Positions 29,001 to 57,318 of a stretch of DNA of 64,000 bases are shown one piece after another. The DNA is from Polytrichum commune. Lineage: Eukaryota > Streptophyta > Polytrichopsida > Polytrichales > Polytrichaceae. The stretch spans positions 53,149,554 to 53,213,553 of the forward strand of contig OX485803.1 of assembly GCA_950295325.1 (NCBI GenBank). The letters run 5' to 3'. The translations under genes and the position numbers were made by a program. Every line of letters begins with the position of its first letter. Position 1 is the first letter of the stretch. Below the pieces are notes generated by a model, which saw only the letters and a list, made by a program, of their open reading frames with translations, was not told where the DNA came from and searched no databases.

Positions 29001-29488
29001 ATGAGTGTGCAATGCATCGATGCCTGACAGCGGTTGGATCGGAAATTGTTCCAGCAAATGAGAGTTGTTTCTTCGAGAAATTCCGCCCACCTCCAAGTGC
29101 ACCCCTATAGTCCCAATCATGTTGCATGAGTTTTCTAGAAGAAAAGAGAAGGAACACAAGATAGCAGTGTCACAGTTGTTGTGTTGGGAGCTCATGTGAA
29201 GGTGTTGCCTTCAATCAATGGTTGCCACTTCATTGACAAGTTTGCATGAACATCAAAGATGTCTATTTTGATAAAAGTGAGATGTATTTGGTGTTCATGT
29301 GGAAATATTTTGTGCTTACATCGACTGTTCAATTTAACATTTGGACACTCGCAACAATTTCAAGGAATTCTCTGCATATATGTGGGACAGTTTACGTACT
29401 CCAAATGAAAGGCGGCTAGGCATTTGTGAGTTGCAGATTTTGGCATGAGAATTTGTGGAGATGCTCAATTATTGAGTTGTTCCCATCT

Positions 29489-29516
29489 AACACTATATTC
29501 GGTATTTGGAGACTTT
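29489..29516 (+). repeat. Left terminal inverted repeat of element A
   Basis: Starts AACACTATATTCG and ends GGAGACTTT. It pairs with 46507-46534 with three mismatches, all in the six-base middle. Preceded by ATCT. Confidence 0.85.
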
Positions 29517-29889
29517 TTGTTGATTATGAGACTATATAAGGATGCACATTTCAAAAATGGACCAGTATTGACGACTAAAAATCCCATATGTATAATGGTA
29601 TGCTACTATTATTATACATAAAGGCATGGAAGTGAACAAAAATGTGAGGCATACATGAAAATAGTTGCGTATGAATGACAACTCGTTATGAATGGAAGGG
29701 AAGATGCGAAGAATGAATGGAAGTTGAATGAATTAATTGGGATAGAAATACAATTATAATGGAAATACCATCAATGTCTTGAGTAACTTGGAATAGCATA
29801 GAAAGTAAGCACTTAAATATGTTCTACACCTAAGCCCATTTAGGGAGTCCGTCCCACTAGTACGCTTCTAGTCACACTAGTCCGACCCA

Positions 29890-30880
29890 CTATTTTTTTT
29901 TGGCGGCTAAGTCCTTTTTTTTTGGCGGCCTCCATGGCTCTAAAAATCTCAGGCCCACGATTGAATCCTTGTGTGTTGCCTGGATAGGAATATGTGTCGT
30001 TCTTGCATGTTTCAGGACGCGCTCCCGAATTGTACGAGGTGGTATTATAAGTAGAATACGAGGGCGTTTGCGAAAGGGAACGTCTTGCGCTTCTCCGGAG
30101 GGCCAGACAACGATCGGACTCGGAAGATGCGGCCTTGAGGGCGTGCCTATCCAAGGAGGACGTGGAGGAGGGCCGGGCACCAAGCGAGCGGGTAGCCACC
30201 TGCGAAACAACGTCATAGGAAGATAAGAATAAGAATGGAGTGGGGAAAATAATGAGGGCGGTTTGGGATGGGCGCTCGTAAAGAGAACGGCACGCAAACG
30301 GAAGACAAGGAAAGCAAAAGCGGGAAAGGGGTTTAGGGTTGAGGAGGGCACCTTGGATTTGGGGACGTCCATGCGGGGAACGGTGGGAACGAAGGGGGCG
30401 TCGACGGGAGCATCCGGAGCCGATGGAACTATTGCAATGTTGGATGGCGGGGGGGAGTCGAGGCGTGGAGGGCCCACGATCGCGGAAGACGTTGCGGGGG
30501 GAGGAACGGAGTCGGCGGGGGAGGTGTGGCAACGGGGGCCTTCCATGCGGAGACGCCGGCTCGGCCCGCGACGAGCGACGGCGTCGTCCCTCGAGGGCGA
30601 GAGGTGTCCCAAACGAACGAGCGTCCGTTTCTCCTTGGAGAGGGGGGAGGGCGACGGGGCGTACGCGCGGGGGACAAGTGCTGGGGGCGGGCTGTTGACG
30701 ACGCCGTCGTCGATGCCGACGTCGCAGGAGTAATCCACGGCCGAGGCCGCGTCGACCGCCGAGAAGTGGTAGAGGGATGGCATTTGGAAGTCCGTGACGT
30801 CGCGGGAAGGGGATGCGGGGAGCGAGAGGGGACGGGAAGAGCCGTCGACCACAGGGGCGTCGCATATGGGGGCAGACTAT
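29890..30880 (-). CDS. GC-rich minus-strand frame, possible exon of element A
   Basis: A frame beginning after CCCATAG at about 30,880 stays open for about 330 codons. Its codons are strongly G/C in third position around 30,500-30,880 (for example SLYHFSAVDAASAVDYSCDV), unlike the host DNA. The product is Pro/Ser/Arg-rich with no recognised domain. It begins at a phase-0 acceptor-like site, and a donor-like GTATATAAG at 31,035 in the HAD exon could splice to it in frame, making it a fifth exon of the ParB-like/HAD gene; otherwise it is a separate ORF or non-coding GC-rich DNA. It contains a palindrome copy with one mismatch (30613-30628). The overlapping frames on both strands are probably shadows. 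Confidence 0.4.
30613..30628. repeat. Degenerate A-type palindrome in the GC-rich frame
   Basis: Reads ACGAACGAGCGTCCGT, one mismatch from ACGAACGNNCGTTCGT. It is the copy nearest the left end of element A and lies in the possible fifth exon. Confidence 0.6.
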
Positions 30881-30881
30881 G

Positions 30882-30925
30882 GGCAAGAACAACAACAACA
30901 ACAATCACAACAACAAAAGACATCC
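30882..30925. repeat. CAA microsatellite
   Basis: Repeated CAA/ACA triplets just upstream (minus-strand sense) of the GC-rich frame; on the minus strand this is a TTG-rich pyrimidine-containing tract leading into the CCCATAG acceptor-like site. Confidence 0.7.
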
Positions 30926-30987
30926 AAAAACGGGGCAAGCATTAGATATGTGAACCACATGATAACAAGCAAAGACATGGAGGCATT

Positions 30988-33900
30988 TCAAATCAATTTA
31001 TTGAGTTTGGCGAGCCTCATGATGCTCTTATATACATTATCGCGGGGGCTTAGCGCCGCATTGCCGAAGGGGTTGGACCTAACAAAAAATGGGATGCTAC
31101 CGGCGTGGAGCACGAGCCTTCTAAGGTAGGGGGCTAGCCTATCGACCAAAAATGTGTCTTGCCTATCGCCGGTCCAAGTGTCCGGGAAGATGACGTTTCC
31201 CGGGGGGTTCAAGACGCTCTTGGTGGGGCTGTCGTCGATGAGGACGGTGTTCTCTGGAGTCGGCCACCACCCGTGCGGCGTCCCTTGCAGACAGGGGACG
31301 CCTCGCCAGAGTCTCGAGCGGAGGACCTTGAGGAACTGTTGTCCTCCGCCTCGACCGCCAAACTTGGGCACCGGTTGGCCCTTCTCGTCGAGCAGCTCGT
31401 CGCATTCCTCTTGGCCGAGGACGAGGCAAGGGCGCGGGAGATCACGGAACAAGAAGTCGACGATGGGCTCCGTGTTGTCCATGACCATGGAGCTCCACAC
31501 AACGACGTGGGCGAACTCGACCACCTCGCGAAGGAAGTCGCGCAGGCCGGGACGGGCGCGGACAGCCTTGCGGTTTATGAGGGTGTCGAGCTCGCCGTCA
31601 TAGTCCCTTTCGTCGGGGTGACGGAAGGGACGCGTGGGAACCCTGGGGATGTGTTGGGTGTGACACAAGACCCCGTTGAGGTCAAAAACTATGAAAGGCT
31701 TGTTCCGGGTTCGAGGTCCACTGGTCGAGGGGTTGCGACCTATCTCCGGGGGGTCCTGTGATGAACAACGCGACTAGTTTAATTCTATGATCTAATAATG
31801 AAATTTTTGCGTTCAAAATAAAGACGATGCATTATGGGAAAAGAGGAGGAAGTAAGGAGGGTTCAAGGAAATATGCACAAGGGCACAATTGCGAACGAGC
31901 GTTCGTGAATGAAGGCTGCGGGGGCGGTGCGCATCATTTACGAACGCTCGTTCGTGAGCGCGGATGCATACATATACGAACGCTCGTTCGCGAAGGAAGT
32001 CGAGAGGGGGTCGCACAGTTTTACGAACGAGCGTTCGTGAGTGAGGTGTGTATGCAAAGAATGCAAAGACGCGCAAGAGCACAGACAACACAAGACGCGA
32101 GAATATGCAATAAGTTGTGGTGATGCGAGTAGAGATCGTCTGCTCATATATTAATTCGGTGAATATGTACAATTGTCTCGCGTGATAATCTATCAAAATT
32201 TCCTAAGGAAAAAATTCAGTGTCCTACAAAATTGATCGGCCCAAGGGATCACATAGAAAAAGGCTCGCGCGGGCAACGTGATGTCGATGGAGTTGAAGCG
32301 CCAAGAACACAACGCGGGGGTTAGTGATGTTACGAACGCGCGTTCGTAAAACATTTGGCATTCTCAGAGATGAGTTACCTCTTTGGTTAACGAACGCGCG
32401 TTCGTAATATCCATTGGGGCAGCAGCCTCTGGATCCATGACCTCCGCCGGACGCTCCGCCTGAGACGACTGGGTCTGTTGGATGAGCTCCACGTCGTCGT
32501 CCCCGCCCAGGTCGAGTCTCTCCATGCGGACATCCTCCATGTGCGCGGATGGATGTCGTTCCTGTTCAGGGCTCTCCACGACCATCCCACGCGGACCTGC
32601 CGAGTCATTGGGGCTCCCCTGCGTTTCCTCCACAATGACCATGTCAGTGTGTTGCGCAGTGTCATCGCCCCTCCTATCTACAACCCTTGGGACGACGGTG
32701 AAAGAGGTCGTGTCCGTGTCTGTGGGCAGTCCTACCCTTGAAGGGGGAGGGGTGAGGACTGCCGGACCTGAAGATTCACGAACGCGCGTTCGTAAATCTT
32801 CATCCTCCCTTAGCGCCGCCGTGATTGCATCGTGGGAGGTTGAGGCGGTCGCCGTCACCTCCGGGGGCAATGGACTTCCCGCCGGCGTTGGGTGTGGCGC
32901 TGTTTGGTGGGAAGGCCCTCCTTGGTACATGACTGGAGGTGGGGGCTGTGAGGGGTATCCTCCAAGGGGGAAGGGGTAAGGTTGCTGGACCGGCGCAGAG
33001 AAGCTCTGCATGTTTCTGAGCATCTCGAAGATGGCGTCAGTTTTGGCCGCTGATTCCCTCAGCTGCTCTTGCAGCCTGGCCAGATGCTTGGCGCTCTCCT
33101 CCTGGGCTGCAGCCATCTCCTCCTTCATCTTCGCCTCCAGCTTGACGTTGAGCTCAGAGACGGTAAGCGCCTCCTCCTTCACCCGCTTGTTCTTGTCGTA
33201 GTCCACCCCAAGCTCGGCCATGATGTCCATGTCCCCCTCGTCCTCGTCGGAGACCTCGATGATTGCTCCCGGCGGCAACTCCACGTAGGGAGTCTTCTTC
33301 ATCCTCCTCCTCGTGTTGCGGAAGAGGTCCAAAGATGGACGCGAGCGTTGGTCGAGGATGTCCAGGGTTTCCATCTTCGGAACCACGGCGGGCCTTGGAG
33401 ACTGTGACGTCGAGCATCCGCCTGGCGTTCCGAAAGGCTCCGCAAGAGACGTTTGCGCGGGGAGGAGGTCCAGGGTTGTCCCCGCGGACGACCCTGTATA
33501 ACCACCCGGAGTCCCTTGAGGGTCGGGAAGATCTGTCGTTGGCGGCAAGATCCGAAGCGGGGGTACATCGAAGGACTGCAGAATGGCGTCCACGTTGGCG
33601 GAGGGGGCGGGCTCGTCGTCCTCTGAATCGTGGAGTGGTATGCCCTCGTCGGCGGGCATACTGAAGTCCATCCTTGGGACAGAGATGTCCTTGAGGTCCA
33701 TCGTCGACGCCTTCGCACGGTGGAACTTGAAGTCTTCTTCGTCGATAGCGTCAACGAAGGTGTTGACTACGAGACCCATCATCTGTGAGAAGAGAGCAAT
33801 AAGGTCAGAAAATACGAACGCACGTTCGTAAACATCAAAGCGTGGCGTGCAACGAGTTTCAAGCATTACATTACGAAGGGGGTTATGTTTACGAACGAGC

Positions 33901-36740
33901 GTTCGTAAACATCAATGCGTCACGTGCAGCGACTTTGAAACAATGCGTTGAGAAGTTGGTTAACTTTACGAACGAGCGTTCGTAAATGGAGTCTGGACAA
34001 CTTACCATGGCCGCATACATGAATTTGGAGCCTCCACATACGTTGTATACCGTCTCTCCACTTATAACCAGACTCTGCAATATAGAGACGTAGAACTCCA
34101 TCCTGAGTTCCATGGCGGGGAAGATGGTGTAGAGGGTCTCTTGCAGCAAATCCTTGGGAGGGGGATGCGGGATGCTGTAGATTTTCTTGAACGTGTTGTT
34201 CGCCTTGATAGGCGGTCGCCCATCCCTAAGCTCATTGTACGTCAAGAAAATCAGGCTGACCGCTCCCACTTGCTTGTTGCCCCTGGCCTCGTTGATGGCC
34301 ACGATCCCCTCCGTCTTCGCTGGCACGTACGTGCTGTGGAAGATGCTGTACTCGAATTTGATCTTCTGCTCGTACAGCTCTGTGACGACCGACAACTTCT
34401 CCTGTTTGACTATCCACAGCCAAACGTGTGGCTCCCTCATGGCCGGCGATTTGAACTCCATGAACTTGGCCATGAAGGGGTTGTAGAAGGGAATGTCCTT
34501 CCCCCCCTGCCTTGACGCACCCGGGATCCCCTTGAAATCGATCAGGGCAAAAGGGCAACCCCGTCGATCCTCCCTCACCTCGGCCCTGCTTATGGTGCCG
34601 TCCCACTTGGAAAATGTGACCCTCTCCACGCCGGAGGTTATCACGCAAAACCTTGCCATCCCTTCGAATGTGGCGTTCCTCTTCCTCTCCAAAAATTGTA
34701 TGTACAACATTACCTCGTGGGGATCCGTGTCGGTTTTCTTAGTCCTTTTGTTCCCCTTCAACTTCAAAACCGAGGCGTGCTCCTTGACCAGACTGCGCAT
34801 GGAGGCTCCGTTGATGTTGTAGTCGACCTTTAACAATTGCCATTGCGGCCAGTTGATGTCGCCGTCGACTTCAAAGATTTTGTACTCTGGTGTGAGTACG
34901 CTCAATTCTCTCATGGCAACAGTCTTCAGCTTCCGGTGGTCACACCACTCCTTGATAGAGTACGTGCCGGGCTTGTGCTTTGGCCTCTTCAAAAAGATCT
35001 TGGGATAGGGAAGGTTTCTTCCCACGGTGTTCCCAAGAACATGAATCGCACACCTCTTCAGCTCTGACTCCGTCAATCCCTGGAGGTGTCTAAAGAACTC
35101 CCTCAGTAGTGGGGGCGCCTCACCGGTTTTTTCCGTGCTGTACTTCTCCTCGGTGTCGGGATTGACCAAATCGCCCGAGTTGTGTGCATCAAAAAACTGT
35201 GTCCACAAGTCCCAGGTGTCCCTGTTGCAGCAGATCAGTCTGAGCTCACCCTTCAGCTCAAGCACTGACTTGGTGGTGGTGGACTTCATATCGATGGAAG
35301 AGAACTTGTCTACCATCGCGTCGCAAAATGCCTGCACAAAACAAGATGTCAGTGTTGCACATAATACGAACGCACGTTCGTAAATTGAGTATGTAATTGA
35401 AGTTTTCATGAATCTAACACTTTACGAACGTTCGTTCGTAAACTCACCTTCCATTGGGGAGACTGGTTCTTGGCGTTCTCCCTTTCCTTTGGTGGGCATC
35501 CGTGTGCCACCCAGACGTCTCTGGCAGCCACTATGTTAGCCGCCCACGAAGCCTCGAACGCCTTGATTTTGTTCCCCGAGTTCAGGAAGGTTGAAATCTT
35601 GCGCAGTTTGTCCCAATCGTCCGACCAGACCAAGAACGCCTTCCAGTACCGCAGGTCAGCCTTCAGCTCGTGCTAGAAGTTGTCGTCCTTGAGGATCTGT
35701 TGCGACGCCTCCAAGCTGTGCTGACCATCTATAATCCAGAATTCTCCATTTTGGATTCGCGGCCAATCCACCTCTGTCGGTCGGGATGTCAGCCCCTTGG
35801 GCATGACGCACACTGTCTGTCTATCCCACTTGACGTTATTCATGAGGTTGTTTATCTGCCACTTCACCCCACCGCTCTCGCGAGACCTTACCACCCACTT
35901 GTTGGGTGACTTTTCGCACTTGAAGCAGTCCACGTTGAACGTGAAGTGGCGCCCCATGGGCCAGCAATCCTTCGAGTAATTATTGAAATCTCGTAGGATC
36001 TTCGTTGCCTTCACCGCATCTGGATTCTCACCCTTCTTTAAAGGGGTTGGCATCACGGGAGGAGAGCTCACCTCAGCGCCCTCTGTTACCCCAGACCTCT
36101 CCATTTCGTCCCGGGACCTCTTCGATGGCGTGGAATGTCGGTTGGGACCCTCCGTCACCCTGCTCGCGGAAGGCACCGGCTTGGGTGCACTTCTCGATCC
36201 TCCTGCCCCGGATGCGGATGGTTTCCGTGGGCTCTTCTTCTTCTTGTTGGCTTCCGCGACCGCGCTATTGTACTTGGAGATATTCAAGGAGAGCGCGGCC
36301 AACTTCCTTGCTGTCCAGTACGAGCTCAGGGTGTACTTCGTGAAGAGGTCCTTGAGGAAGTGTTTGGCATCAGCCACTACGTTATTTTCCGCGTATGTGT
36401 AGGAGAAACTATGTCTCCTGTACTCTAACAATAGGTTAATGTGATCCTTCTTGTTTTTCATGTCTAGAATCACATAATCTCCTTGTGCCTCAATTGATTC
36501 TACTTCCCAAGTCTTCATCTGCACCCATTGCTCTGGCTGGTCCGGCGTCGTTTCCAACTCGTATGTGAAGCGAAGACAGAAAAGACCGTCTGATGTCTTC
36601 TCTGGCAGTGCCGTCCATTCCCCTATGAAGTCCTCTTTGGGGACATAATTATCGTTTCCGTTGGGGTCGGACACTGACTCTGGTAGTTGATCTATCTGCA
36701 CTGCGAACATCTCAATGGCGCTTCTGCTCGGTCTTGCCAT
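30988..36740 (-). CDS. ParB/DGQHR-like protein with C-terminal FCP1-type HAD domain
   Basis: Model: exons 36740-35448, 35331-34006, 33782-32379 and 31755-30988, every junction phase 0 with GTGAGT, GTAAGT and GTAACT donors, giving 1,597 codons. The ATG directly follows a CTGCAG acceptor-like site, so a 5' leader exon is likely. Exon 1 has a basic KKKKSPRK stretch and, at 335-345, WIIDGQHSLEA, matching the DGQHR/ParB-like nuclease motif with Ser for Arg, followed by a region ending AARDVWVAHGCPPK. Codon 356 is TAG, after which the frame stays open. Exon 2 (432-873) is unrecognised. Exon 3 is Pro/Ser-rich with a SUMO-interaction-like IIEVSDEDE (about 1047) and a coiled coil (about 1074-1133). 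Exon 4 holds an FCP1/NIF-type HAD phosphatase: FIVFDLNGVLC (Asp1366), VVWSS (about 1427), LIDDSPTKS (1515). The HAD exon could instead be a separate gene. Function in the transposon is inferred only. Confidence 0.65.
31756..32378 (-). repeat. Intron 3 with five A-type palindromes
   Basis: Copies of ACGAACGNNCGTTCGT (first or last base varying in two) start at 31891, 31940, 31976, 32023 and 32332. The centres are AG, CT, CT, AG and CG. The intron runs from a GTAACT donor to a TTCATCACAG acceptor. Nothing else is recognised in it. Confidence 0.8.
32390..32405. repeat. A-type palindrome inside coding exon 3 (3' end)
   Basis: ACGAACGCGCGTTCGT lies 11 bp before the exon's GTAACT donor. On the minus strand it is read in frame as part of DITNARSLTKE. 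Confidence 0.8.
32778..32793. repeat. A-type palindrome inside coding exon 3 (middle)
   Basis: ACGAACGCGCGTTCGT here sits in a longer inverted repeat, with GAAGATT on one side and AATCTTC on the other. It encodes DLRTRVRES in frame in the ParB-like/HAD gene. Confidence 0.8.
33783..34005 (-). repeat. Intron 2 with three A-type palindromes
   Basis: Palindromes start at 33814, 33891 and 33968, about 77 bp apart, with centres CA, AG and AG. They fill most of this 223-bp intron between a GTAAGT donor and a CTTCTCACAG acceptor. The segments between palindromes are themselves alike (GTTTACGAACG, CATCAAwGCGTsrCGTGC), so this part grew by tandem duplication. Confidence 0.82.
35332..35447 (-). repeat. 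Intron 1 with two A-type palindromes
   Basis: Palindromes start at 35366 (centre CA) and 35424 (centre TT). The second begins eight bases inside the GTGAGTTT donor. The 116-bp intron ends TTTTGTGCAG. Confidence 0.82.
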
Positions 36741-37335
36741 CTGCAGAGCACATAAACATTTAGTATTGTGTTTACGAACGAGCGTTCGTAATTGACAAAG
36801 CAAATCATATACACTAATCATTGAACTCTGGCTATGGATACCCGTGAGAAGTTGTAATGATGTCTTCGCTGATTTCATTTACGAACGATCGTTCGTAAAG
36901 AATGTGGTTGCTAAGGTGTATTTGACACAAGTTTACGAACGTGCGTTCGTATTGTTTCTAAACAAGTCCATGAGTTGTCCAGGGTTATCTAATTTCCACG
37001 AGGGTTGTTCGAATTTCCATGAGCATCTTCTAAATAGGTGAATTAATACTTTAGTTCTTATTTACGAACGTGCGTTCGTAAATAATGCTACTTGGAAATG
37101 CAGACAATTACCATGAAGGGTTTGGTATATTGTTATAGTTTGTGATTACGAACGTTCGTTCGTATTTTTGTATGTGTAATTGGATTTGAGGATTTTCTGA
37201 TGTACAGGGTATAGACGAATATACGAACGTGCGTTCGTAAAAATGGAGGGTGAGGTGCGTATTTACGAACGCACGTTCGTATATGTTTGTGGGGTAAGGC
37301 ATGTATTCACGCCACATTTACGAACGAACGTTCGT
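36741..37335. promoter_or_regulatory. 5' region of the ParB-like/HAD gene with eight palindromes
   Basis: Perfect ACGAACGNNCGTTCGT copies start at 36774, 36881, 36935, 37064, 37148, 37223, 37265 and 37320, with centres AG, AT, TG, TG, TT, TG, CA and AA. The outer bases are usually TTT before and AAA after, extending the symmetry. The nearest copy is 34 bp upstream of the ATG, probably in a leader intron ending CTCTGCAG. A regulatory or protein-assembly role is inferred from position and symmetry. Confidence 0.8.
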
Positions 37336-37801
37336 AAATGTGGTCATCTGGGATTAGGAAATGGTATATTTATTTATGTACATATATATATCCGTACCTA
37401 TACGTATATGTATACGTATATATACGTATAAATGTTGGTATGAATGTTGCAATCTGCCATTGTTCATGATCCTGCAACTCGTGATCAGATTGATGAAACA
37501 CAAGTGAAAAATGGAATCAGAACAAAATTGCGAGTCAGTGATTGATAGTTCAGAATGAAGAGGAAAGTGTTATTTCATACAAAACATGACATACCTCATA
37601 ATGCAGAAAACAAATCACAAGGAATTCATCAAACAACAATTTCAGATTGTGAAGGAGTGATTTGTAAAGGAAACCTGTACTCACATTGAATTGTTGCACA
37701 CAAATCCTCCTGCCTTCACTTTGTCACACTCTCAAGCCTTCACAACTTATATGCAAATCCTACACAAACCCTGATGTACACAACTCACAAGCTTCACAAA
37801 A

Positions 37802-38129
37802 CTCAAGCTTTCTGAAGCTCTCAAGCTCTCAAGCTCTCAAGCTCTCAAGCTCTCAACCTTTCTGAAACTCTCAACCTCTCAACCTCAAACTCAAGCTCTC
37901 AAGCTTTCTAAAACTCAAGCTTTCTAAAACTCAAGCTCTCAAGCTTTCTAAAACTCTAAACCTCTCAAGCTTTCTAAAACTCTCTACCTCTCAATCTTTC
38001 TAAAACTCAAGCTCTCAAGCTTTCTAAAACTCTAAACCTCTCAAGCTTTCTATAACTCTCAACCTCTCAAGTTTTCTATAACTCTCAACCTCTCAACCTT
38101 TCCTACTCTCAAGCTTTCCTATTCTCAAG
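37802..38129 (+). repeat. Pyrimidine-rich tandem repeat
   Basis: Imperfect units such as CTCAAGCTTTCTAAAACT and CTCAAGCTCT recur about twenty times. Non-coding. Confidence 0.85.
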
Positions 38130-38330
38130 GTTCTGACAACACAACAAAACAACATTCACAATGAGGCTCTAAAATTGGCAAGGGCTTCGCCGCACCTAAG
38201 AGCTCCTCTCCTCCTCTGCTCCAAATGACAAATGAGGAGGAGAGAGAGGGGCGCGGGGAGGTAGCCGGCGCCGCTAGGGTTTCCAAGCGGCGGCCACGTG
38301 GCTAGTGGCCACTGGCGAGGGCTGGGATGG

Positions 38331-38515
38331 GGGAGGGGGATGGGGATGTGGGATGGGGATGGGGATGGGGATGGGGAATGGGAATGGGGAGGGAATGGGG
38401 AGGGGATGAGGATGGGAGGGGATGGGGAGGGGATGGGGAGGGGATGGGATGAGGATGGGATGGGAGAAGGGGAGGGGGAGGGGATGGGGATGAGGGGATA
38501 CCATGGGGACATGGA
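38331..38515 (+). repeat. GGGGAT-type tandem repeat
   Basis: Repeats of GGGGAT and GGGGAGGGGATG in a strongly G-rich strand; quadruplex formation is possible. Frames crossing it are repeat translations, not genes. Confidence 0.85.
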
Positions 38516-39432
38516 GGGATGAGGGTTCAGGAAAAATGAAATAGGAGATGGGAGGAGCTTAGTTTAGGGACATAAATTTGACTTTCCGTATCCCTTTAGT
38601 ACCTCGACATATGGATTCCTTGTAAACATATTTTAGAAAAGTATGTTCAGATAATTTGTATTTAACAATTCATGTCATTTAGTAGGTTTTCGATGAAGAA
38701 TCCACCCCCAAGATGCAAATGTCGTTTTCATGAACGAGACATCTTTAAAGTTCTTCAATGGTTCCTCAAATAAATATTACATATATAAATGACTCAATTT
38801 AAATTGTGGAGAGGGGCTATCTGATTCTCCACAAGAGGTGGATGAAAATTCAATTTTCAATACGATGTCATTAATTTCATGAGGTCTTAGCTTGAACCAC
38901 CCTTAATATGATATTTAGTGTTAGATACTCTAAATACAAACGCATAGTACACTAAATATCACTAACCCTATGAAGGTAACTACTATTCATTGCGAACTCA
39001 AACACTTAATGTCAACTATAATGGTAATATGTGGATGTCGCATGCACAAATTTTGTGTAAGGAAATTAATATGAAAAAAACAATTAACAATGATAAAAGC
39101 ATAAAGGACATGGTAGTAAGAAATGTGGTGGCCCATTTAATATGTCCAACACTAATTATCAAAGAATTGAAATTTAGTGTTGACCATGATAGCGTAACAA
39201 CACTATATTATACAATCAAACACTAAATATCATATTTAGTGTAGTGTATTTTAGCCATGTGGTCGCATGTTTTGCTAGTAGTATCAATTGATAGTATGAG
39301 CTTCCCATAAATTAAGTTAGTGCGATATGGATTATTTAGGAGTCGATATTGTTTGTGTATATAATGCATTGAAGTAACGATCTAAACCCTAAGCCCGCAA
39401 ACCACATAGACAACTCTTTCACAAACTCTATA

Positions 39433-39470
39433 CCCTAACCCCAAACCCCAAACCCTAAACCCTAAACCCT
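39433..39470 (+). repeat. Interstitial telomere-like repeat
   Basis: Four to five units of CCCTAAA with CCCCAAA variants at the left. CCCTAAA is the usual plant telomere unit. This short run is not a chromosome end. Confidence 0.8.
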
Positions 39471-40784
39471 ACATCTTTTTATCTTACCAACCTTTCTTAT
39501 ATATGGCCATGTTGTGGTCTATGCGCATCATGTCAAAATGGTCTACCAATGTTGGTTCAATTGGAAATTGCTTTATTTGGGTCATAGCAACTATAATAAT
39601 CTAGACTCATGCCAATAATTGTCATTTTGATATAAAACATTGGTTTAGGGGGTGAAGAGTGAATTTTGAAATGCTAGCCCTTTCACCTTAATAGTTTTGA
39701 GTGCAATTTGATCACACAATATACACTTAGTCTTATTATAACATGAATGGTATAAGACTTCAACTTAAATCAACAGTTAAGCTATGGTCATGCACATACT
39801 TCTTGTTGCAAATAATACAAATATATAATTGTAAGTGCATACTATTGTATGCACCATTCCAAATTCGTTATCCATTTCCACACCATGGTGGACCTAAAGT
39901 GAATTTCCAATAGGACGTCAAGTCATTTAATTAGGTGTCAACTTGAACTAACGATCGAATACTAGTGCATTAAACTTTAATTTTCACCAATGATGAATTG
40001 CAACAATGATTCATATTAATATGGGCCGATGTTTGGTGAGCCTCCAGTTCCAAATGTCCTCAATCTACCTAGCACAAGCCATTATGGATTAAGCGACTTT
40101 TTATTGGTATTCATGCACTTGGTGACCATATTACAAGCATTTTTTTTATGTGAATCATATGATACCTACAATTTTAGGGGATTCCACAATATGTTCTTAG
40201 CCACTCTTACCTCATTGTGTGTGTGAATATATATATCACTTAGACCTTCATCAATTCACTTGGACTTCACACCTTAGCCGCAAATAATTTAATACTCAAT
40301 GTTAACCCATCAACCTATATATATATAATATAATAACCCATATATAAAATAGTAAAATATACATATATATACATATAAATATAGACATATAGACATATAG
40401 ACATATTTTCGTGCGACCTTGGTAACAACTAAGGTGTGCGACGGATTTATAGATTTACAATATGTTGCGTGCACGCAAGACATGTTCCATACATAATGCT
40501 ATTTATATATTGCGCATGGATGGAATGGCATATTGTTAGGTCAAAGTAGGCGGCGGGAATCCGCTTTTTAAATAGCATCCAAGGAATTTTGAACCATCGG
40601 GGGGAAGGTACTTAAAGCTCTTCCCCCCCACAGAAGAGCTCTTTTCTGCGGCACATCCAAGTGTGCGCTCCACAGACCTGACTGGAACGCGCTCAAACCA
40701 TTTTCTTGTGCGCCAACCCTACACCACCCAGGTCCACTACAGACTGCACATACCCGTATATACCGCCGCAAATACCGGATGTTT

Positions 40785-41859
40785 ACGAACGCACGTTCGT
40801 AAACGTGAGTTGGTAGCACATGTACAATAGGTACATCGATATGATATGAGTTGTTTACGAACGTGCGTTCGTAAGTTGATCACAACCGTACTCGACATTG
40901 AGTTCCTTATAGACAGAACTAGGCACGAAAATTGTGTCGATGATATACGAACGTACGTTCGTATATCTACCTTCAAGACCCAGACGCGCATGAGTTCCCG
41001 TGTAACCGTTTTCTCCAACGGAACATCTGGTGATGGGATATTTACGAACGTGCGTTCGTAAATATCACCTGGGATTATTTTTCAAGAATCCAAAAAACAT
41101 TCCTTAATTTATACACTTCAGTGCATTGGCCACGTTAACAATATGCAAGTTAAATACGAACGAGCGTTCGTATTTCTCACTACCGTTTGTGTCCGCGGAG
41201 AATTATGTTAGTTGAATTTTACGAACGCACGTTCGTAAATACCACCTGTCCACCGTCCACGCATCCACCAACAGGCCTGTTGACGCAAGCATGTGTAGAG
41301 GACTACACCGTGTTTATGATAGATACGAACGCTCGTTCGTATCTATGCAATCATGATTTAGTGATAGATTTCGACTGTCATTTTCCACTGGTTATTGGAT
41401 AACATGTTTCCCTGTAACGTGGCTATAGATACCTCTATTCGGACGTGTCCAATCATTTTTTCCAAACACTGTCGCGGCTGTGACATACAGATGATCGGTC
41501 GTTTGCATCCGCCCCTAAGTTTCGGCTGGAACTTACGAACGATCGTTCGTAAACACTCGCCCATCACATATGATGCTTACTGCATGTGGATAAAGTGACA
41601 AGTATATTTTAGGTGCTCTTATAATATGTCCCATTTAGATTTTACTGTATATTGGGTTGATATTTTCGTCCGCGCGTTCGTGAATATATGTGCTTGTGTT
41701 GTCTCTTGGTGGTGGACAACCCTTCCAATGTTTTATTGGCGACTCGACCCAAAGCCCTTCACGGGTAATATATATCGGAATGGGGTTCCGTTGTGCAGGG
41801 ACGTCTGAGTCCCGTGTAGGATTTGCATGTCATCGAGCTGTTGTCGAACGCACGTTCGT
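40785..41859. promoter_or_regulatory. 5' region of the element A transposase-like gene with ten palindromes
   Basis: ACGAACGNNCGTTCGT copies start at 40785, 40857, 40947, 41044, 41156, 41221, 41325 and 41535; a degenerate copy lies at 41666-41681 and one with an altered first base at 41844. Centres are CA, TG, TA, TG, AG, CA, CT, AT, then CG and CA. Spacing is 65-210 bp. The last copy is about 145 bp before the start codon of the DUF7869-type gene. Sequence between copies is not alike, so they are not simple tandem repeats. Confidence 0.82.
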
Positions 41860-42003
41860 CTTCATATGTGAGGTCCTGCAACGGTGTGGCGAGAGTTGTT
41901 TGTGATTTTTGAGCCATATATGTAGGCATATCTCGTATCCACTTTTGTATGCATTGCGGTGGTTGTTGTGTTGGTCATTTTATTGGTGGTTTGTTTAGGT
42001 TGG

Positions 42004-45000
42004 ATGGCGATGCACGTTGGATATAGTTCATTGGAGTTGTCCACAAAAGCTTCCTCTTCCGATGATGACTGTAAACTATCTTCACCATCGGCGGGTAGTC
42101 ATGGCATGGCAAATGTCATGGGTGGGTTTGTGGATGCATCCTCCCACGAATCATTTGAAGCGCACGAACAATCTATACGTTCCGGGGATGACAATGATGA
42201 CATTCCGTTATGTGCCGGTTTCGGTAGGGAGCAATGGGTGGGCCTTGATGTTGTTCTTTTCAACGATGTTGGTGTCCCCGTGGCAGATGGCATATGTAGA
42301 AACTCTGATCCCCGTGATTGTGTTGATGCCAACCCCCTTGGTCCCGATGATGTGGGTGTGTGCATCTTGAATTCTTTGCTTCCGCTTGACGTCCCGGTGA
42401 CATGGAGATTTTCCTTGCGTCGATGGCCTCTTTGTCGGGTTCTCCATGACGGAGTAAGCTTGTTGGACCATGAGCGCCGCCATAATCAAACGCAATTAGC
42501 TTTGTTGACCAAAATACGTCCTCGCAAAGGCCTACGCAGATATGATTCTAACCGTGTGCCTCGTGGAGATAAGGAACGTCGACGGGATCGCATATTGGGA
42601 GACGAAACTATCCGTCTTGTGTCCGCCAAAGACTGTTGCGAGAGGAAATGTTGCCAATTTTTCCCGCGGGAGAAAATTAAGTCCCTACGTCAAGAGATGT
42701 GGCTTGCGGATTTCCGTATGAGATCGGCAAAGAAACTCGAGGTCCACAGAAATGTCCACATTGACACCCATGGGCGTAAGGTGGTCACACTTGAGAATGT
42801 GGAAGTGTGTTGTACTGCGTGGTATACCATCCACGCCGTGTCAAAGTCTGACTTTTATAGGTTTCAAAAATATTCATTGTTCGGTCGCCGCTCTCGATTT
42901 CATGGCAATTCGGGCACAAAGAAACCTAGGGAGGCTACACTCCAAGCCTCCGCGACACTCTCCACCATCATAGTCCCATTGGCCGATGCAATGCCCCACA
43001 AGACGAGGACATTGTCGTCAGGGGAGAAAGTTGTACAAATGGTATTGCCCACGGGTACAAAATGGAAGAACATATTAACGGACATCAATGAAGTGGGTCG
43101 CATAGCGGGATGTGGGCCCATTTCTTTGTCCAAGTTGAGTGTGATTAAAAACCAACAGTTTGCCGAATACATTTTGAAGAGACCTGGGGACAAGTTCGCT
43201 AGGTGTACGACGTGTGAAAAATACAAAGGTCTTCGAGACGCCCACCCCATAGGCACCGAATCCCACACTAGACACCAAGCAAAATATATTGAACATGTCA
43301 ACAACCAAGAGGCTCACCGTCAAGATTACTACAAGAACCGTGCTCTATCCATAATGAGGCCTACAGAAGTTCTAACAATCATCCATGATAAAATGGACCA
43401 CGCCAAGACCGCATGCCCTTGTTATGCACGCAAAATTAAGGCCACGGATGGTCTCTTCAAGTTGCCCGTATCTGTCATAGGTTTGTATTGAATCACAAAT
43501 ATGTATTCAAATTCTCTCAAATTTTACTGGGTGTGTTTGCCAAATGTCCAATTTCATACCTCCGTTTGGAGTTGTCGTTGTTATTGTTGTTGTTCAAGCA
43601 TCGTTTGTTTTTTTTCGCAGGGATGATTGCCCACGGCCATGGAGACGTAAAGTATGCCCATTATGGGTTGGATTTTTACCCTGGCGATGCTAACCACACA
43701 GTGGGTTCATTTGCAAAACTCTTGCGCGATCTGGAGAAGCCGCCGTTACATTCATCACGTGCACTTTTTGATGGTTGTGGAACGACACCCCTTTACGAAG
43801 CAGTGCTTGCGGGGAAGGAGGTTTGTATGTCGTCATTGCCAGAACCACCGGGAGAACCTATTTGTGCAAAACCATTGCCTCCAACTCTTCACGTTCAACT
43901 TGATAATTGCGCGAAAGACAACAAATGTCGATACGTATTTTGTTTTTGGTCATTGCTCGTGGCGAAAGGAATCTTCAAGGAGGTGTTTGTATCGTTTTTG
44001 ATGGTGGGACATACACACGACGACATTGATGCATCATTCGGACGGTGGAGCATGAAGTTGCATGAAGAAGATTTTCCAACCATACCTCTTCTTATGAAAT
44101 CGTATATGGATTTGGACCGTATGCCAGCGCACCTCTCCATGAGGAGTGCCCGAAACACCATGGGCACAAGGGGGACCCCGGAGTGACACCCGGGACTTGT
44201 GGCGCTGTTGGTGAGAGGGCCCAAGTGATCCTAGTGTGGGTGAGGGCCCCGGGCGTTGGGAACGCCTCCCACCCACGGAGACTAGGAGGCACAAGGGTAA
44301 GGCCATAAGCTATGCGTAGCTCATGGCGTGATGATTCTAGAATGCTCAAGATCACCTCAATCGGAGGTGTGAGCTAGGAGTTATGGCCATTTGAATGGGG
44401 CGCTGTCCCGGGACAGCGCCCTGGTACAGCAGTGCCTGGGAGTGATTCCTGGGAGTGATTCCCGGGACTGCCAAGGTTCAAACAGGCATAACTTCCTCAA
44501 TACTTGCCCGAATGGGGCAAGTGAGGAGTCCATCAGCATCTACGTGAAGCGTAGATGAGGATGGAGTGGTTGGTTGTTGGAATCAGACATCATACAAGGA
44601 AGTTATAATGGTCTGAAGCTGATGGGGGCTTCTAGGCCAAGCGGCTAAGGGAAAGTGTCCACTTGGCCCCAACTCTTGGTAGAGAGACAAGAGGTTGGTT
44701 GACGGTGGGGTAGGGGCCCCGCGTAGAGTCCTAGAGGCTTATTTGGGTGAGGTGGTGTGGCCTCACCCACCCGAGGCCAAACGGCACGGCCTCCATGGGC
44801 ATTGGCCCAATGTGAGGCCATAGTTGCCTAGTATGGTTCGGGTTGTTGTAGTGTTGCTCCGGCAACGCGATGATCAACATAGGATTGGACTTCCATGGAT
44901 GGAAGTCCACATCCAAGAAATGAGTTACCGATTAAGGGGTGAGTCCCGAAAGCAAAGTAGGAGGGCTGGTTCCCTCCTATGAACTATAAGGTCCGGGGTA

Positions 45001-46131
45001 GGAGGAGCTAACCATTAGCATGGCGGAATGCGAATAGTTAGCGCTCGTAACCTTTGCTAGAATTGAAAATTGGCAAGATTGTCAAGGGGGGCTAGCAAGG
45101 GTTGCGACAATATGCCAGTAATTCCGCACATGATTGAGGAAGTACCAGATTTCAAGGCCTTCATCAAGTCATACATGTTGAAGGGAGGGGACCGTTTGGT
45201 GGGGCATACCAAAGCACAACAATTCCGATTCTATATAAGGGATGATGGTCTCCCAGCCATGCAATTCAAGCTTTTGTGCACATCTCCTAATTGGGGACCG
45301 GATGATGGTATACTCGTATGGCGTCAAGACAATGATGGGAAATGTTTGCTCCCGGATGGGGATCCAAAGCCTTGCAAACCCGACCCCATGAGGAATGGGC
45401 CGGAAATCATCAAAGGCATATCCGGATTCATTGAATATTGGAAAGAATTGTGTGAGGAGGACATCACTAGACGTGTTAGAGATACTCATGAACCTTTGAT
45501 TGCGTATTGGGATCGCATTCGCTCGGCCCTAATGACACTTGGTGGCGACACCCGTACAACTTTAACACAAGGATTTTGGCCACAAAGCCATTTAACGGTT
45601 GTCGAGTCCGACACCATGTTTTTTAGCAATGGAGACGTTCGTGAAGAGTTCGCAATGGACGAGCATTACGTTGGCCCTGCCCGCAATCGACCGGCACCGT
45701 CGTTTCGTGTAGGTGTTGATTGCCATGAAGGTTATTTGGTCCTTGTACGAGCAGGGGATGAGGAACATCCCAAGCCAATTTGGTTGGTGAAAGCATTGTC
45801 TTCACCCAATTTTGTTCGAACTAGCCCCAACTTTCGTCAGATTGAGGTGGAATATTGTCGTCCAAGTACTAAAGACCAGAACGTGCTACGCACTTATTTA
45901 GGTTGGGACACCAAAAAGAATTTTAAGTGGACAGTGGACTCAGCGTACACACCGGTTTGGATAAACACGGATACTATACTTTGTGCTTGGAAGCCGCGCA
46001 AAGGTTCCAAAACAGAAACAATGACCATCCCCCAAAAACATATAGATTTTGCCAAAGATAACTTGGCACGTATTGCAGCTGCGGAAAATGACGCCGATAA
46101 TGGATATGAAGTGGAAGACGGAGATGTGTAA
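42004..46131 (+). CDS. Transposase-like protein of element A (DUF7869-type), split by an insertion
   Basis: Exon 1 42004-43480, intron 43481-43620 (ends TTTTTTTTCGCAG), exon 2 43621-44118, insertion-derived gap 44119-45118, last exon 45119-46131; joined this way it encodes 995 aa. The chosen ATG follows TTTGTTTAG, an acceptor-like site also present before the element B gene. Seen features: acidic N terminus, Cys pairs KDCCERKCCQFF and VCCTAW, FARCTTCEKY with following His residues, then MIAHGHGD (Asp501), LDNCAKDNK (Asp587) and GHTHDDIDASFGRWS (622-636). This Asp/His pattern suggests an RNase H-like transposase core; I recall it as DUF7869 but did not search. About 60% similar by eye to the 57319-60387 protein. 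If the gap is not spliced, the protein stops at 44,186. Confidence 0.7.
44128..45110 (+). mobile_element. 983-bp insertion with 8-bp target duplication
   Basis: TATGCCAG occurs at 44120-44127 and again at 45111-45118. Removing the insert plus one copy restores an unbroken reading DLDRMPVIPH, which aligns with DLENIPVIPH in the paralogue, so this is a true insertion. The insert is GC-richer than host DNA, has no clear terminal inverted repeats, contains internal duplications (GGGAGTGATTCCyGGGA) and no ORF of note. Its class is unknown. GT at 44119-44120 and AG at 45117-45118 would allow in-frame splicing. Confidence 0.85.
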
Positions 46132-46506
46132 ACATAACATAGGTGGGAGTTCATGGCGAAAAACATGGACGCTTAGTAGACTTGGTTTTTAATAGACTTC
46201 ATGGACTTGTCACACTCCATTGTGGTATACGTTTGGGATGTGCCATCCAAATTCATAAGAGCCTTACTTATGGGATGCGCACCCCAAACTCTATAATGAC
46301 ATAAACCATTTTTTTTTTTAGATTCGATTGTTATTTTCCACATGGAGCTCACGTTTGCATTTTAATTGACATTCTCTATTTTTAGAAATAAGAATATTCT
46401 TTACGTGCAACTTTTTAAATCGTTATGTTCTTGATGTTCCCAATATTCCGTATGCCCACAATATTGGCATCCCAAACTATGGGCAGATTTTATTTTGAGA
46501 CTTTCG

Positions 46507-46534
46507 AAAGTCTCCGATTAACGAATATAGTGTT
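46507..46534 (-). repeat. Right terminal inverted repeat of element A
   Basis: Ends CGAATATAGTGTT followed by ATCT. Just inside it lies a perfect hairpin, GAGACTTTCGAAAGTCTC (46497-46514), which overlaps the repeat. Confidence 0.85.
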
Positions 46535-46889
46535 ATCTAGTGGATCACACTAACCATTGCCTCATATTCCAGATGAATTTGATCGGTCAAAGGTCTTTTT
46601 CGGGAGATAAAACATGACATTTTCTCATGCATCATTGCCTCCAATTGTTATAATCTAGAAATCCCAAGGATAATCTGTGCCCATTTCTTCCCTCATTATA
46701 GCTCATCTCTCATGTTTCAAGATCTTACGGATAAATCCAATCTTAACCTCAAAACTTGTCCATGAGAATTCCACAACCCACATTGATTGAAATGCACTCA
46801 AAGCAATCTTTTTGATAGGCTGGGAAGTTATGGACTAAAGGCAATGCTAGGGCAAATTAAGACTTGATTGCATTATCGACCGTGAGATT

Positions 46890-49089: not shown

Positions 49090-49091
49090 TA

Positions 49092-50756
49092 CCGTAGCAC
49101 CATAGCTGGTTCGTGCACCTCAAAATGAATATTTATTTATTTTTTTGAAAAATAAGGTTCGTCAACGAAAAATATAATTTATGCAATTTTGTCAATCCTA
49201 TGATTTTAAAAAGATTAATTCGTTTTTTCGTTAAGATCCAGCAGTTGTGCAAGTAGGTTGTTGTTTTTTTCATTCATTCGTGGCGGCTTCTTGGCCTTAG
49301 ACCTAAGTATCCACCTTAACTTTACTTAGTGCGGCTCTTGTTCGTCTTTGCACAATGTATGACATTGTTAGGTCTTTTGTATGTATTTGCACTTTGATAT
49401 GTGTGAGAAGAGTGTTAGAAATGGCACCAAAACAATGACGGGATTAATTTCAATCACAACACAAATGCAAAAGAAAACCTTCTACACCCTCTCTGCATGT
49501 CTACCTTAAAGAGACTAAAGAGAAACAATCCATAAAGAAGAAAAAGCTTGCACATAACGAACTTCTCAATCCTGCTGCAGTAGGGACACTCATGAAGCGT
49601 ACCTGTAGTCTTTGATGGATGCACTGATCAACACAGATAGCCAGTCCTTCTAAACATCAACTTCAAGAACATAGACAACATTTTTTGGTCAAAAGTAGCG
49701 AACACAAGATTTAGTACAGTTGGAAACTATTTATTTCTCAAAACTCAAGAAGTAATCTGCCACTCCTAAGCAACGCATACTAATTAGAGTAGGAATAGTC
49801 AACGACATCATAATCTACAATTTCATATGTTTCAGTAATCAGACTGATAGTGTTTATCAACAGCAATAGAAACTTCCCAAGTGCACATCATGCCTTTGGG
49901 GAAGACAACCAACTCACCTGCCCCAAACTCAACAAAGTCCGATGATCCTTCAGATTGTGAAGAGCTGAGAAGCTGAGAAGGATCATCGGATCATCTGCCG
50001 CAGAGAGGGGGAAAAAAATCAAACATCACATTACAGGAACTACAATCGAAGGCTTAAATCGTGAAAGACAGTTAATTGACATCTAGAAGGCTCTTACAAA
50101 AACAATATCAAGAAAAAACACCCACACAAGTATGTCACAAGGGACAACTACACAAACTTGCAAAATTTCAGTAACGTAAATGCCCAACATGAGCACACAC
50201 AGACTAAAAACAAACGTGCAAACATGATTACATTGCAGGAAACAAACTTACAGAAGAACACACAAAAAAACAAGGATGCAAGCATCCAAAGCTCCACATA
50301 TCTAATCACAACCTAATCCCCTAACGAATGAGAACAACATGATTTGCAAATATAAAAGCATAAAAACGATGGTTAGGTATAGGTTGATAGAGCCGCTCCC
50401 CGTGTAGAAGTCTTTGGGTCTCCTCACCCTCATGAGTCCCTCCTCTATACTTACTAGGCAAGATGAAGGCAAGGCATTTTAAGGGTAGCGTTGGGAAGTG
50501 CTCGGCGTTTTTGTCCCGTGACTTGAGCAACCTCATGAAGTTCGTGAGCAAGGCGCTGAGCCATTAACGCGTAATCATGCAACCTCTTATAACACGTTGA
50601 CGTGGTTGGAGCTTAGAAGAGTCCAAATTTTTCATTATTCGTTTTTTTTTCTAATGCAAATTTTCACTTATTCGTTTGATTCGACTCATAATTTTTGATT
50701 TTTTTCGGTTTTTTATTTGGGAATTATTTTTGCACGAACCAGCTATGGTGCTACGG
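49092..50756. mobile_element. 1.7-kb non-autonomous DNA transposon with TA flanks
   Basis: Starts CCGTAGCACCATAGCTGG (continuing TTCGTGCA) and ends with the exact reverse complement; similarity of the inverted arms continues more weakly for about 150 bp. TA is present directly outside both ends (49090-49091, 50757-50758), as for Tc1/mariner-type elements or simply by chance. The interior holds a hairpin at 49939-49990 and no substantial ORF. Confidence 0.72.
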
Positions 50757-50758
50757 TA

Positions 50759-55905: not shown

Positions 55906-55940
55906 CACACTTGGCGGGTTTCAGTCTGACCCTTGTGAGG

Positions 55941-57117
55941 TTTGGGTCGGTCGACCCAAACCCCTCCACTAGTGTGGGCGGGTTCTAGTCTGACCATTCT
56001 GAGGTTTGGGTCGATCGACCCAAACCCCTCCACTAGTGTGGGCGGGTTCTAGTCTCACCCTTGTGAGGTTTGGGTCGGTCGACCCAAACCCCTTCACTAG
56101 TGTTGGGGGGGGGGGGGGGGTCTAGCCTGACCCTTGTGAGGTTTGGGTCGATCGACCCAAACCCCTTCACTAGTGTTGGGGGGGGGGGGGTCTAGTCTGA
56201 CCCTTGTGAGGTTTGGGTCGGTCGACCCAAACCCCTTCACTAGTGTTTGGGGGGGGGGGGTCTAGTTTGACCCTTGTGAGGTTTGGGTCGGTCGACCCAA
56301 ACCCCTTCACTAGTGTTTGGGGGGGGGGGGTCTAGTTTGACCCTTGTGAGGTTTGGGTCGGTCGACCCAAACCCCTTCACTAGTGTTGGGGGGGGGGGTC
56401 TAGTCTGACCCTTCTGAGATTTGGGTCGGTCGACCCAAACCCCTACCCCACTATGGGCGTTTATCGTAAAACCTTTCAGAAGGTTTGGGTCGGTCGACCC
56501 AAACTTTTTCGCACATCGTGAACGAATTGTTAATGGCCCTTACCCAAGGTACTCAGAAGGTTTGGGCGGACAGAGTAGGAACCTTATCCCATCATATGTA
56601 ATGTTTGGGTCGAGCGACCCAAACCTCATCCCAGTGTGGGTGGATTTACACTGTGAAAGTTTGGGTCGACCGACCCAAACCCTTTCCCAGTGTGGGTGGA
56701 CTTACCCTGTGAAAGTTTGGGTCGACCGACCCAAACCCCTTCCGAGTGTGGTGGGTTTACCCTGTGAAAGTTTGGGTCGGTCGACCCAAACCCCTTCCCA
56801 GTGTGGATGGATTTAGCCTGTGAAAGTTTGGGTCAACCGACCCAAACCCCTATCCAGTGTGGGTGGATTAACCCCGTCAAAGATTGGGTCGGTCGACCCA
56901 ACCCCTTCCCCAGTTTCGGAGGTTGTAGTTGACCATGACAAGGATTGGGTCGGTCGACCCAAAATTTTCCCCACAGCGTGATGGAATTCTAAATGGCCCT
57001 CAACCCATCATTGTACAAGGTTTGAGTCGGTCGACCGGAACCCGACCCTATCCCACGGGCAAGGTGTGGATGGCCCTCAATCCCTGGTGCCACAGGGTTT
57101 AGGTCGGCCGACCCAAA
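55941..57117. promoter_or_regulatory. B-type palindrome array upstream of the element B gene
   Basis: About 19 copies of TTTGGGTCGNNCGACCCAAA, starting at 55941, 56005, 56069, 56142, 56212, 56282, 56352, 56420, 56484, 56604, 56660, 56716, 56771, and degenerate ones near 56827, 56883, 56944, 57021 and 57098; a half-site remains at 56571. Centres include GT, AT, AC and AG. The first eight lie in 63-73-bp tandem units with G runs of up to about 18; later ones are 55-75 bp apart in less similar sequence. The array ends about 200 bp before the start codon. Confidence 0.88.
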
Positions 57118-57318
57118 CTCCCACCCAAAATATTTTGTGGAACATTTTGTGGACTGGCGCATAGTATTGGGAGCTCACATTGCATTTGTGTTGCAAATGT
57201 CTTGATCCTCAGTGTCCCCATTTATCGTGATGTTTTGCATTTTCCAATATTTGATTTTTTTGGACCCTTACGTTGTGTCCATGTTTGTTGAGGTTTCATG
57301 TGCATTTGTGTAGGCGCA

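What the first reader, a model, noticed from the sequence alone, without database searches (positions are those of the whole stretch)
29489..46534. A 17-kb plant transposon combining a ParB-like/HAD gene, a DUF7869-type gene and a private palindrome set
Seen: 28-bp inverted ends (25/28), ATCT target duplication, two divergent multi-exon genes, and about 31 palindromes, all inside the ends. Known: DNA transposons usually carry a transposase and sometimes a helper gene, with subterminal binding sites. Inference: this is an autonomous-type member of a large transposon family in which the helper is a ParB/DGQHR-like protein fused to an FCP1-type phosphatase domain. I know of no described plant superfamily with this gene content.
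Basis: partly seen in the sequence, partly recalled or inferred. Interest (0 to 1): 0.95.

Follow-up and report, generated by a model that had tools for sequence, protein, structure and literature searches.

The report
Moss-type transposon with private palindrome code
A large, recently active plant jumping gene carries a probable transposase and a fast-evolving helper gene, and its control regions and introns are packed with one exact palindrome whose sequence differs between families together with the helper, which looks like a built-in protein-to-DNA address code, possibly for escaping silencing.

Summary
29489-46534 is a real DNA transposon: 28-bp inverted ends (25/28), 4-bp target duplication (ATCT here; 10 of 11 readable copy pairs agree) and many near-identical copies in the 408-Mb host genome. 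Two divergent genes: a DUF7869 protein (probable DDE/D transposase) on +, and a four-exon helper on - (weakly ParB/DGQHR-like N-terminal part, NIF/FCP1-like last exon). This copy is broken (in-frame stop in the helper; 983-bp insertion in the DUF7869 gene). The strongest result is new. The 22-bp palindrome TTTACGAACG-NN-CGTTCGTAAA (26 exact 16-bp cores here; 5602 in the genome against 4 for a reversed control) lies in helper introns and upstream of both genes, not at the ends. Two further families in the same genome keep the layout and 10-NN-10 design with other half-sites, TTTACGGACG (helper 52-55% identical) and GTTTGGGTCG (36-37%), in helper introns and upstream of the DUF7869 gene. Half-site type follows the helper tree. 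The window holds a second DUF7869 gene of the GTTTGGGTCG family. Best reading: a sequence-specific helper/palindrome system laid out like Arabidopsis VANC/VANDAL anti-silencing. Binding and anti-silencing are inferred; superfamily (Sola?) and ParB fold are unproven.

The parts
29489..46534 (.). whole transposon, 17046 bp including a 983-bp secondary insertion
   Evidence: inverted ends, ATCT duplication; same borders in other copies
29489..29516 (+). left terminal inverted repeat (28 bp)
46507..46534 (-). right terminal inverted repeat (28 bp)
29485..29488 (.). target site duplication ATCT, left copy
46535..46538 (.). target site duplication ATCT, right copy
35448..36740 (-). helper exon A (431 codons; DGQHS motif, weakly ParB-like); in-frame stop at 35673-35675 in this copy, open in copy B
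   Evidence: open in L066
34006..35331 (-). helper exon B (442 codons), the part used for family comparison
32379..33782 (-). helper exon C (468 codons), looks like a low-complexity linker (by eye)
   Evidence: splice sites read by eye, exon lengths A-C all multiples of three
30988..31755 (-). helper exon D with NIF/FCP1-like phosphatase domain, motif DLNGV in place of DxDx(T/V)
   Evidence: PF03031 E 1e-16; four CTD small phosphatase sequences in the PDB, best E 0.0017
31756..32378 (-). helper intron C-D with 3 exact palindromes (2 more with one mismatch)
33783..34005 (-). helper intron B-C with 3 exact palindromes
35332..35447 (-). helper intron A-B with 2 exact palindromes
36774..37335 (.). 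8 exact palindromes 5' of the helper ATG
40785..41550 (.). 8 exact palindromes 5' of the DUF7869 gene (a ninth with one mismatch at 41844)
42004..43480 (+). DUF7869 gene exon 1 (probable transposase)
43621..46131 (+). DUF7869 gene exon 2, interrupted here by the 983-bp insert
   Evidence: PF25273 E 1.6e-35; uninterrupted in copies A and B
44128..45110 (.). secondary insertion (983 bp) with 8-bp repeat TATGCCAG at 44120-44127 and 45111-45118; a separate repeat also seen near other copies

Best explanation
A large DNA transposon (4-bp target duplication) of a moss-type plant genome, moved by a DUF7869-family, probably DDE/D-type, transposase. Its second gene encodes a fast-evolving protein that recognises, probably as a dimer, the family's private 22-bp palindrome (10-bp half-site, 2-bp free spacer), which is clustered in the helper's introns and 5' of both genes. 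By binding there the helper keeps the control regions of its own family active, most likely by countering host silencing (the VANC/VANDAL design), possibly simply as a transcription factor. Each family has its own half-site, so each helper would serve its own family only. SHOWN: transposon, borders, duplication, recent spread, palindrome enrichment and position, covariation of half-site with helper clade in three families. INFERRED: transposase activity, helper-palindrome binding, anti-silencing, role of the NIF-like domain (possibly acting on the polymerase II tail, or inactive given DLNGV).
For: Transposon. Transposase candidate: PF25273, 117 homologues among 6107 candidates, invariant or nearly invariant D and H columns in DxMDxxKT, QxDN and VGHTHxxID motifs. 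Palindromes: 26 exact in the element; 30 with up to 2 mismatches against 0.08 expected; 5602 exact in the genome against 4 for the reversed pattern; 16 of 26 are 5' of the two genes, 8 in the three helper introns, 2 in helper exon C, 0 elsewhere. Covariation: family 2 helper loci, 6 of 6 fetched carry GTTTGGGTCG-NN-CGACCCAAAC in the introns beside exon B, the same palindrome as upstream of the window's second DUF7869 gene, and a DUF7869 gene 88.8% identical to that one (over 2220 bp) lies beside one of these helpers. Family 3 helper loci: 9 of 10 fetched carry at least one exact TTTACGGACG palindrome, and one family 3 element has four TTTACGGACG sites upstream of its own DUF7869 gene. An 82%-identical helper (L086, 316 residues compared) keeps ACGAACG. 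Types fall into separate clades. The helper diverges more than the transposase: family 3, exon B 52-55% against 78% (449 residues, exon 1 only); family 2, 36-37% against 62% (994 residues). Same layout as VANC21 sites: introns of VANC21/VANB21 and upstream of the transposase VANA21, different motif for VANC6 (PMC5735166, passages read).
Against: No binding, methylation or expression data. The covariation rests on three families; loci within a family are copies. The tenth family 3 locus, L082, has no exact site: two mismatched ones of the family 3 type and one nearer to the window's type; L077 and L081 have mismatched sites beside an exact one. CpG decay in palindromes (2 of 107) is lower than elsewhere (39 of 772), but not significantly (Fisher P = 0.10). 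No DNA-binding domain was detected in the helper: only sub-threshold matches, among them an HTH PHROG in 1 of 16 rows at E 0.31. Two palindromes are coding.
Confidence: 0.55

Rival explanations
1. The palindromes are operator sites of an ordinary autoregulator: the helper represses or activates its own and the transposase promoter, with no role in chromatin silencing (like TnpA of En/Spm, recalled).
For: Arrays sit 5' of both genes and diverge with the helper.
Against: 8 of 26 are spread over three introns and 2 lie in coding sequence; an operator system would seem to need fewer (judgement).
Confidence: 0.25
2. The palindromes are read by the DUF7869 transposase, as internal sites for synapsis or regulation.
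For: They also lie upstream of the DUF7869 gene and differ between families.
Against: None near the ends; DUF7869 exon 1 is 78% identical between families 1 and 3 although the half-site differs, while the helper is only 52-55% identical.
Confidence: 0.08
3. A ParB/parS-like loading and spreading system: the helper loads at palindromes and coats the element, or tethers extrachromosomal copies.
For: Short DGQHS box aligned to three bacterial ParB proteins at E 0.012, PHROG ParB-like E 0.096 in 1 of 16 rows, DUF6551 E 0.03 and DUF1015 E 0.043 in 1 of 16 rows (that these are ParB-related is recalled); palindromic sites.
Against: All scores weak (hhalign probability 3.5%, 21 columns); no structure model could be made; the Arg of the usual box (recalled) is absent.
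Confidence: 0.08
4. The palindromes are themselves small repeats that accumulated in the element without function.
For: In family 2 they sit in tandem units of about 36-73 bp.
Against: In the window's family the arms are nearly unchanged between copies (2 of 26 sites altered, both in copy B) at matching positions while the 2-bp spacer differs from site to site; half-sites are clade-specific with constant 10-NN-10 design.
Confidence: 0.04

Closest known systems
VANC / VANDAL anti-silencing system of Arabidopsis (Mutator superfamily)
   Same: Transposon-encoded fast-evolving protein, family-specific motif clustered in introns of accessory genes and upstream of the transposase, motif and protein change together (PMC5735166 passages; PMC10398659 abstract)
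   Different: Other transposase (DUF7869), 4-bp duplication, no detected relation of the helper, 22-bp palindrome with free 2-bp spacer instead of an 8-9-base motif; anti-silencing untested here
Sola superfamily of DNA transposons
   Same: 4-bp target duplication, elements can exceed 15 kb, present in the moss Physcomitrella (PMC10741241 passage; PMC9033089 table passage)
   Different: I could not compare the transposases; I know of no Sola element described with a helper or palindrome set (recall; the source paper PMC2727372 is not held)
DNA transposons with accessory enzymes (KolobokP with a His-Me nuclease; fungal transposons with TET/JBP)
   Same: Transposase plus second gene inside one element (PMC9587614 abstract; PMC12730594 listing)
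   Different: Different genes; no cognate internal palindromes in the abstract and listing that I saw
ParB-parS partition systems of bacteria (recalled)
   Same: Possible DGQH-type ParB-like box and palindromic sites
   Different: Similarity only at motif level

Membership tests
Cut-and-paste DNA transposon | terminal inverted repeats with fixed-length target duplication in independent copies | tested here: met
   10 of 11 readable pairs (13 chosen)
Cut-and-paste DNA transposon | DDE/D transposase with RNase H fold | tested here: inconclusive
DUF7869 (PF25273) proteins | match above Pfam cut-off | tested here: met
   122.9 bits, cut-off 26
Sola | 4-bp target duplication | tested here: met
Sola | transposase homologous to Sola transposases | not testable with these tools
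   no Repbase; PMC2727372 not held
VANC anti-silencing proteins | motif clusters in introns and upstream regions, differing per family together with the protein | tested here: met
   layout only:
VANC anti-silencing proteins | binding of the motif and loss of DNA methylation on expression | not testable with these tools
   needs protein and bisulfite data
VANC anti-silencing proteins | sequence homology to VANC | tested here: inconclusive
   no VANC-related family among Pfam hits with E up to 1 for the helper exons; no direct comparison made
ParB | ParB N-terminal domain found by Pfam | tested here: not met
   no ParB_N match at E up to 1; own-genome PF02195 search gave 3 places on two small contigs, none in the element
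NIF/FCP1 phosphatase | domain match above cut-off | tested here: met
   61.4 bits, cut-off 21.8
NIF/FCP1 phosphatase | catalytic motif DxDx(T/V) (recalled) | tested here: not met
   reads DLNGV in window, A and B

The most novel reading that the evidence does not exclude
A second, independently evolved plant transposon anti-silencing system: a family of large DUF7869 transposons in which a rapidly evolving, possibly ParB-fold protein carrying a polymerase II CTD phosphatase-like domain recognises a private CpG-bearing 22-bp palindrome (10-NN-10) and, by binding or spreading, keeps its own family unsilenced; the palindrome alphabet (ACGAACG, ACGGACG/ACGGCCG, GGGTCG) records successive changes of specificity.
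Probability: 0.35. Interest if true: 0.9.

Novelty: new variant of a known kind. Interest (0 to 1): 0.8.

Why it matters
Sequence-specific anti-silencing by transposons is, to my knowledge, described in detail only for VANC/VANDAL. Here one genome holds at least three families with the same architecture and a matched helper and palindrome, with many near-identical copies, so a protein-DNA specificity code and its change can be read from sequence and tested at the bench. It would give non-flowering plants their own counter-silencing system and gives DUF7869, so far nameless, a biological setting.

Tried and rejected
Tried without result: viral contig scan with the DUF7869 alignment, 202 pattern stretches, none confirmed; PDB sequence search with the DUF7869 alignment, no match, and with the helper alignment, two weak macroH2A sequences at E 1.5-1.6; search for helper homologues of 878-2793 aa, 4347 candidates, none at E <= 0.01; literature on DUF7869, 0 papers; ParB-like with eukaryotic DNA transposons and palindromes (10 listed of 396), ParB with moss and Sola (10 listed of 957), nothing relevant among those listed; a Polytrichum genome search, nothing useful among the 10 listed of 40. 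Non-autonomous copies: none of the 60 end loci (3.2 kb each) held a complete short element. Empty site: in the sequence held locally only the window and its own end loci matched; the genome-wide query did not complete. Rejected: chance palindromes; terminal transposase-binding sites (no such palindrome near the ends). The CpG protection test was not significant.

Not answered: genome-wide counts for the other two palindromes and a spacer control (one of them repeated up). Structure prediction was never accepted.

Full report
What is there. The stretch 29489-46534 begins AACACTATATTCG and ends with the inverse, 25 of 28 bases alike, between ATCT and ATCT. The host genome (G000; seven contigs of 42-78 Mb make up 406 of 408 Mb) holds many copies: the left 212 bp gave 567 candidates, of which 40 were scored, all at 98-100%; the right 200 bp gave 772 candidates, of which 40 were scored, at 94-100%. 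I paired 13 ends; 11 were readable on both sides and 10 of 11 have equal 4-bp flanks, different from copy to copy. Two full copies, A (16023 bp) and B (16152 bp), match the window throughout at about 98%; the regions compared differ by 0.7-1.6% at aligned sites. So this is a recently mobile family with these borders. Copy B is the one pair whose flanks do not match.

Genes. On the + strand a two-exon gene (42004-43480, 43621-46131) encodes a protein of 998 residues in copies A and B with DUF7869 (E 1.6e-35). It has 117 homologues among 6107 candidates; eight carry an organism name, all Ceratodon purpureus or Physcomitrium patens, so the host is most likely a moss (inference; seven chromosomes would fit Polytrichaceae, recalled and not tested). 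The alignment of 39 (38 homologues, one own) keeps DxMDxxKT, QxDN and VGHTHxxID motifs, which I read as a DDE/D site (inference). In this copy the gene is cut by a 983-bp insert with an 8-bp repeat, absent from A and B and found elsewhere beside other copies. On the - strand a four-exon gene, whose exons A-C are multiples of three, would give 1596 codons. Exon A has an in-frame stop here and is open in copy B. Each of the three helper copies is broken in at least one exon. The helper has 15 homologues of 480-1528 aa (7996 candidates scored), none with an organism name. P0119 (863 aa) joins exons A and B without an intron, and homologues run on past exon B in text that fits a splice donor there. 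No homologue of 878-2793 aa was found, so the union with exons C and D rests on reading frame alone. Exon D is NIF/FCP1-like (E 1e-16) with DLNGV in place of the usual motif (the motif rule is recalled). ParB likeness of exon A is weak: hhalign E 0.012 and probability 3.5% over 21 columns against three bacterial ParB proteins, better than nine controls with E 0.23-0.85; PHROG ParB-like E 0.096; DUF6551 E 0.03.

Palindromes. There are 26 exact ACGAACGNNCGTTCGT and 30 within two mismatches, all inside the element; shuffles give 0.08 for the latter. Copies A and B have 26 and 25. By place: 8 upstream of the helper, 8 upstream of the DUF7869 gene, 2, 3 and 3 in the three helper introns, 2 in exon C, none elsewhere. 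The spacer varies from site to site, the arms are nearly fixed. Genome-wide there are 5602 exact sites against 4 for the reversed pattern; the places listed, all on C1, fall in clusters.

Palindrome and helper change together. Homologues of the helper from metagenomes carry translated intron text, which suggested other palindromes. In the same genome, a search with P0131 gave 88 scored places (1508 candidates) and with P0129 88 scored (1182 candidates). I fetched 6 and 10 of these. All 6 of the first set (36-37% identical to the window helper in exon B) have GTTTGGGTCG-NN-CGACCCAAAC in the introns beside exon B. Of the second set (52-55% identical) 9 of 10 have at least one exact TTTACGGACG palindrome; L075 and L084 also have exact TTTACGGCCG ones. 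The tenth, L082, has only mismatched sites, two of the family 3 type and one nearer to the window's type; L075, L077, L081 and L084 have mismatched sites as well as exact ones. A third query, P0128, gave 86 scored places (1184 candidates), the window's own among them; of these I fetched one new locus in part, L086, 82% identical to the window helper over 316 residues, which keeps ACGAACG. In the three families the arms are about 10 bp and the spacer 2 bp. In the tree of 30 exon-B sequences, types do not mix between the three main clades; labels of 11 P rows are inferred from translated introns, P0119 has none, and the L075-L084 rows were labelled as one group, L082 included.

The transposase side agrees. 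The window's second DUF7869 gene (57.3-60.4 kb, 62% identical to the first) has 18 sites of GTTTGGGTCG-NN-CGACCCAAAC (up to 3 mismatches, 0.01 expected) just upstream. Beside a helper with that palindrome lies a DUF7869 gene 88.8% identical to it over 2220 bp. In a family 3 element the helper (+) and a DUF7869 gene (-), 78% identical to the window's over 449 residues of exon 1, are divergent, with four TTTACGGACG sites upstream of the DUF7869 gene and one variant site (TTACGGATG) just past its exon 1. So three families share layout and palindrome design and differ in half-site. The helper differs more than the transposase, as expected for the part that sets specificity (inference).

How it may work. 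The layout resembles that of VANC targets: introns of VANC21 and VANB21 and the region upstream of VANA21, with a different motif for VANC6 (PMC5735166, passages read; PMC10398659, abstract). I therefore think the helper binds its palindrome and keeps its family's control regions from being silenced. Copies show more C-to-T change in CHG (0.0376) and CG (0.0237) than in CHH (0.0135), as expected if they are methylated, but CpGs in palindromes are not significantly protected (2 of 107 against 39 of 772, P 0.10). A plain autoregulator is the main rival.

Known or new. 4-bp duplication, length and moss hosts fit Sola (PMC10741241, passage), but this was not tested at protein level. No paper in the library mentions DUF7869; searches for ParB-like proteins with eukaryotic DNA transposons and with moss or Sola (10 titles shown each) listed nothing like this. 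I rate it a new variant of a known kind (transposon with sequence-specific accessory protein), with a bolder reading given in the section on the most novel reading.

Noticed in passing
window 55940-60351: Second DUF7869 gene (+) with 18 copies (up to 3 mismatches) of GTTTGGGTCGNNCGACCCAAAC just upstream; no helper match by tblastn in 46.5-74 kb around it.
   Followed up: yes
window 44128-45110: 983-bp mobile repeat with 8-bp duplication TATGCCAG; the same repeat lies near other copies (L014, L023, L033) and its GCGCTGTCC palindrome recurs in L085.
   Followed up: partly
G000:C1:53146448-53146660 (about 3 kb left of the window): Another left end of the same family, 98% identical, pointing away.
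   Followed up: no
window 46497-46514: 18-bp palindrome GAGACTTTCGAAAGTCTC overlapping the inner part of the right inverted repeat.
   Followed up: no
window 37802-38129 and 38324-38499: Two simple tandem arrays between the genes (CTCAAGCTTTCT-type and GGGGAT-type), where the copies align with shifts.
   Followed up: no
window 14645-15372: 270-bp tandem repeat, 2.8 copies.
   Followed up: no
window 49090-49117 and 50731-50758: 28-bp perfect inverted repeat about 1.6 kb apart, possibly a small transposon.
   Followed up: no
G000:C12 and C23 (L001-L003): Small contigs with ParB-domain genes, probably bacterial contamination of the assembly (inference).
   Followed up: no
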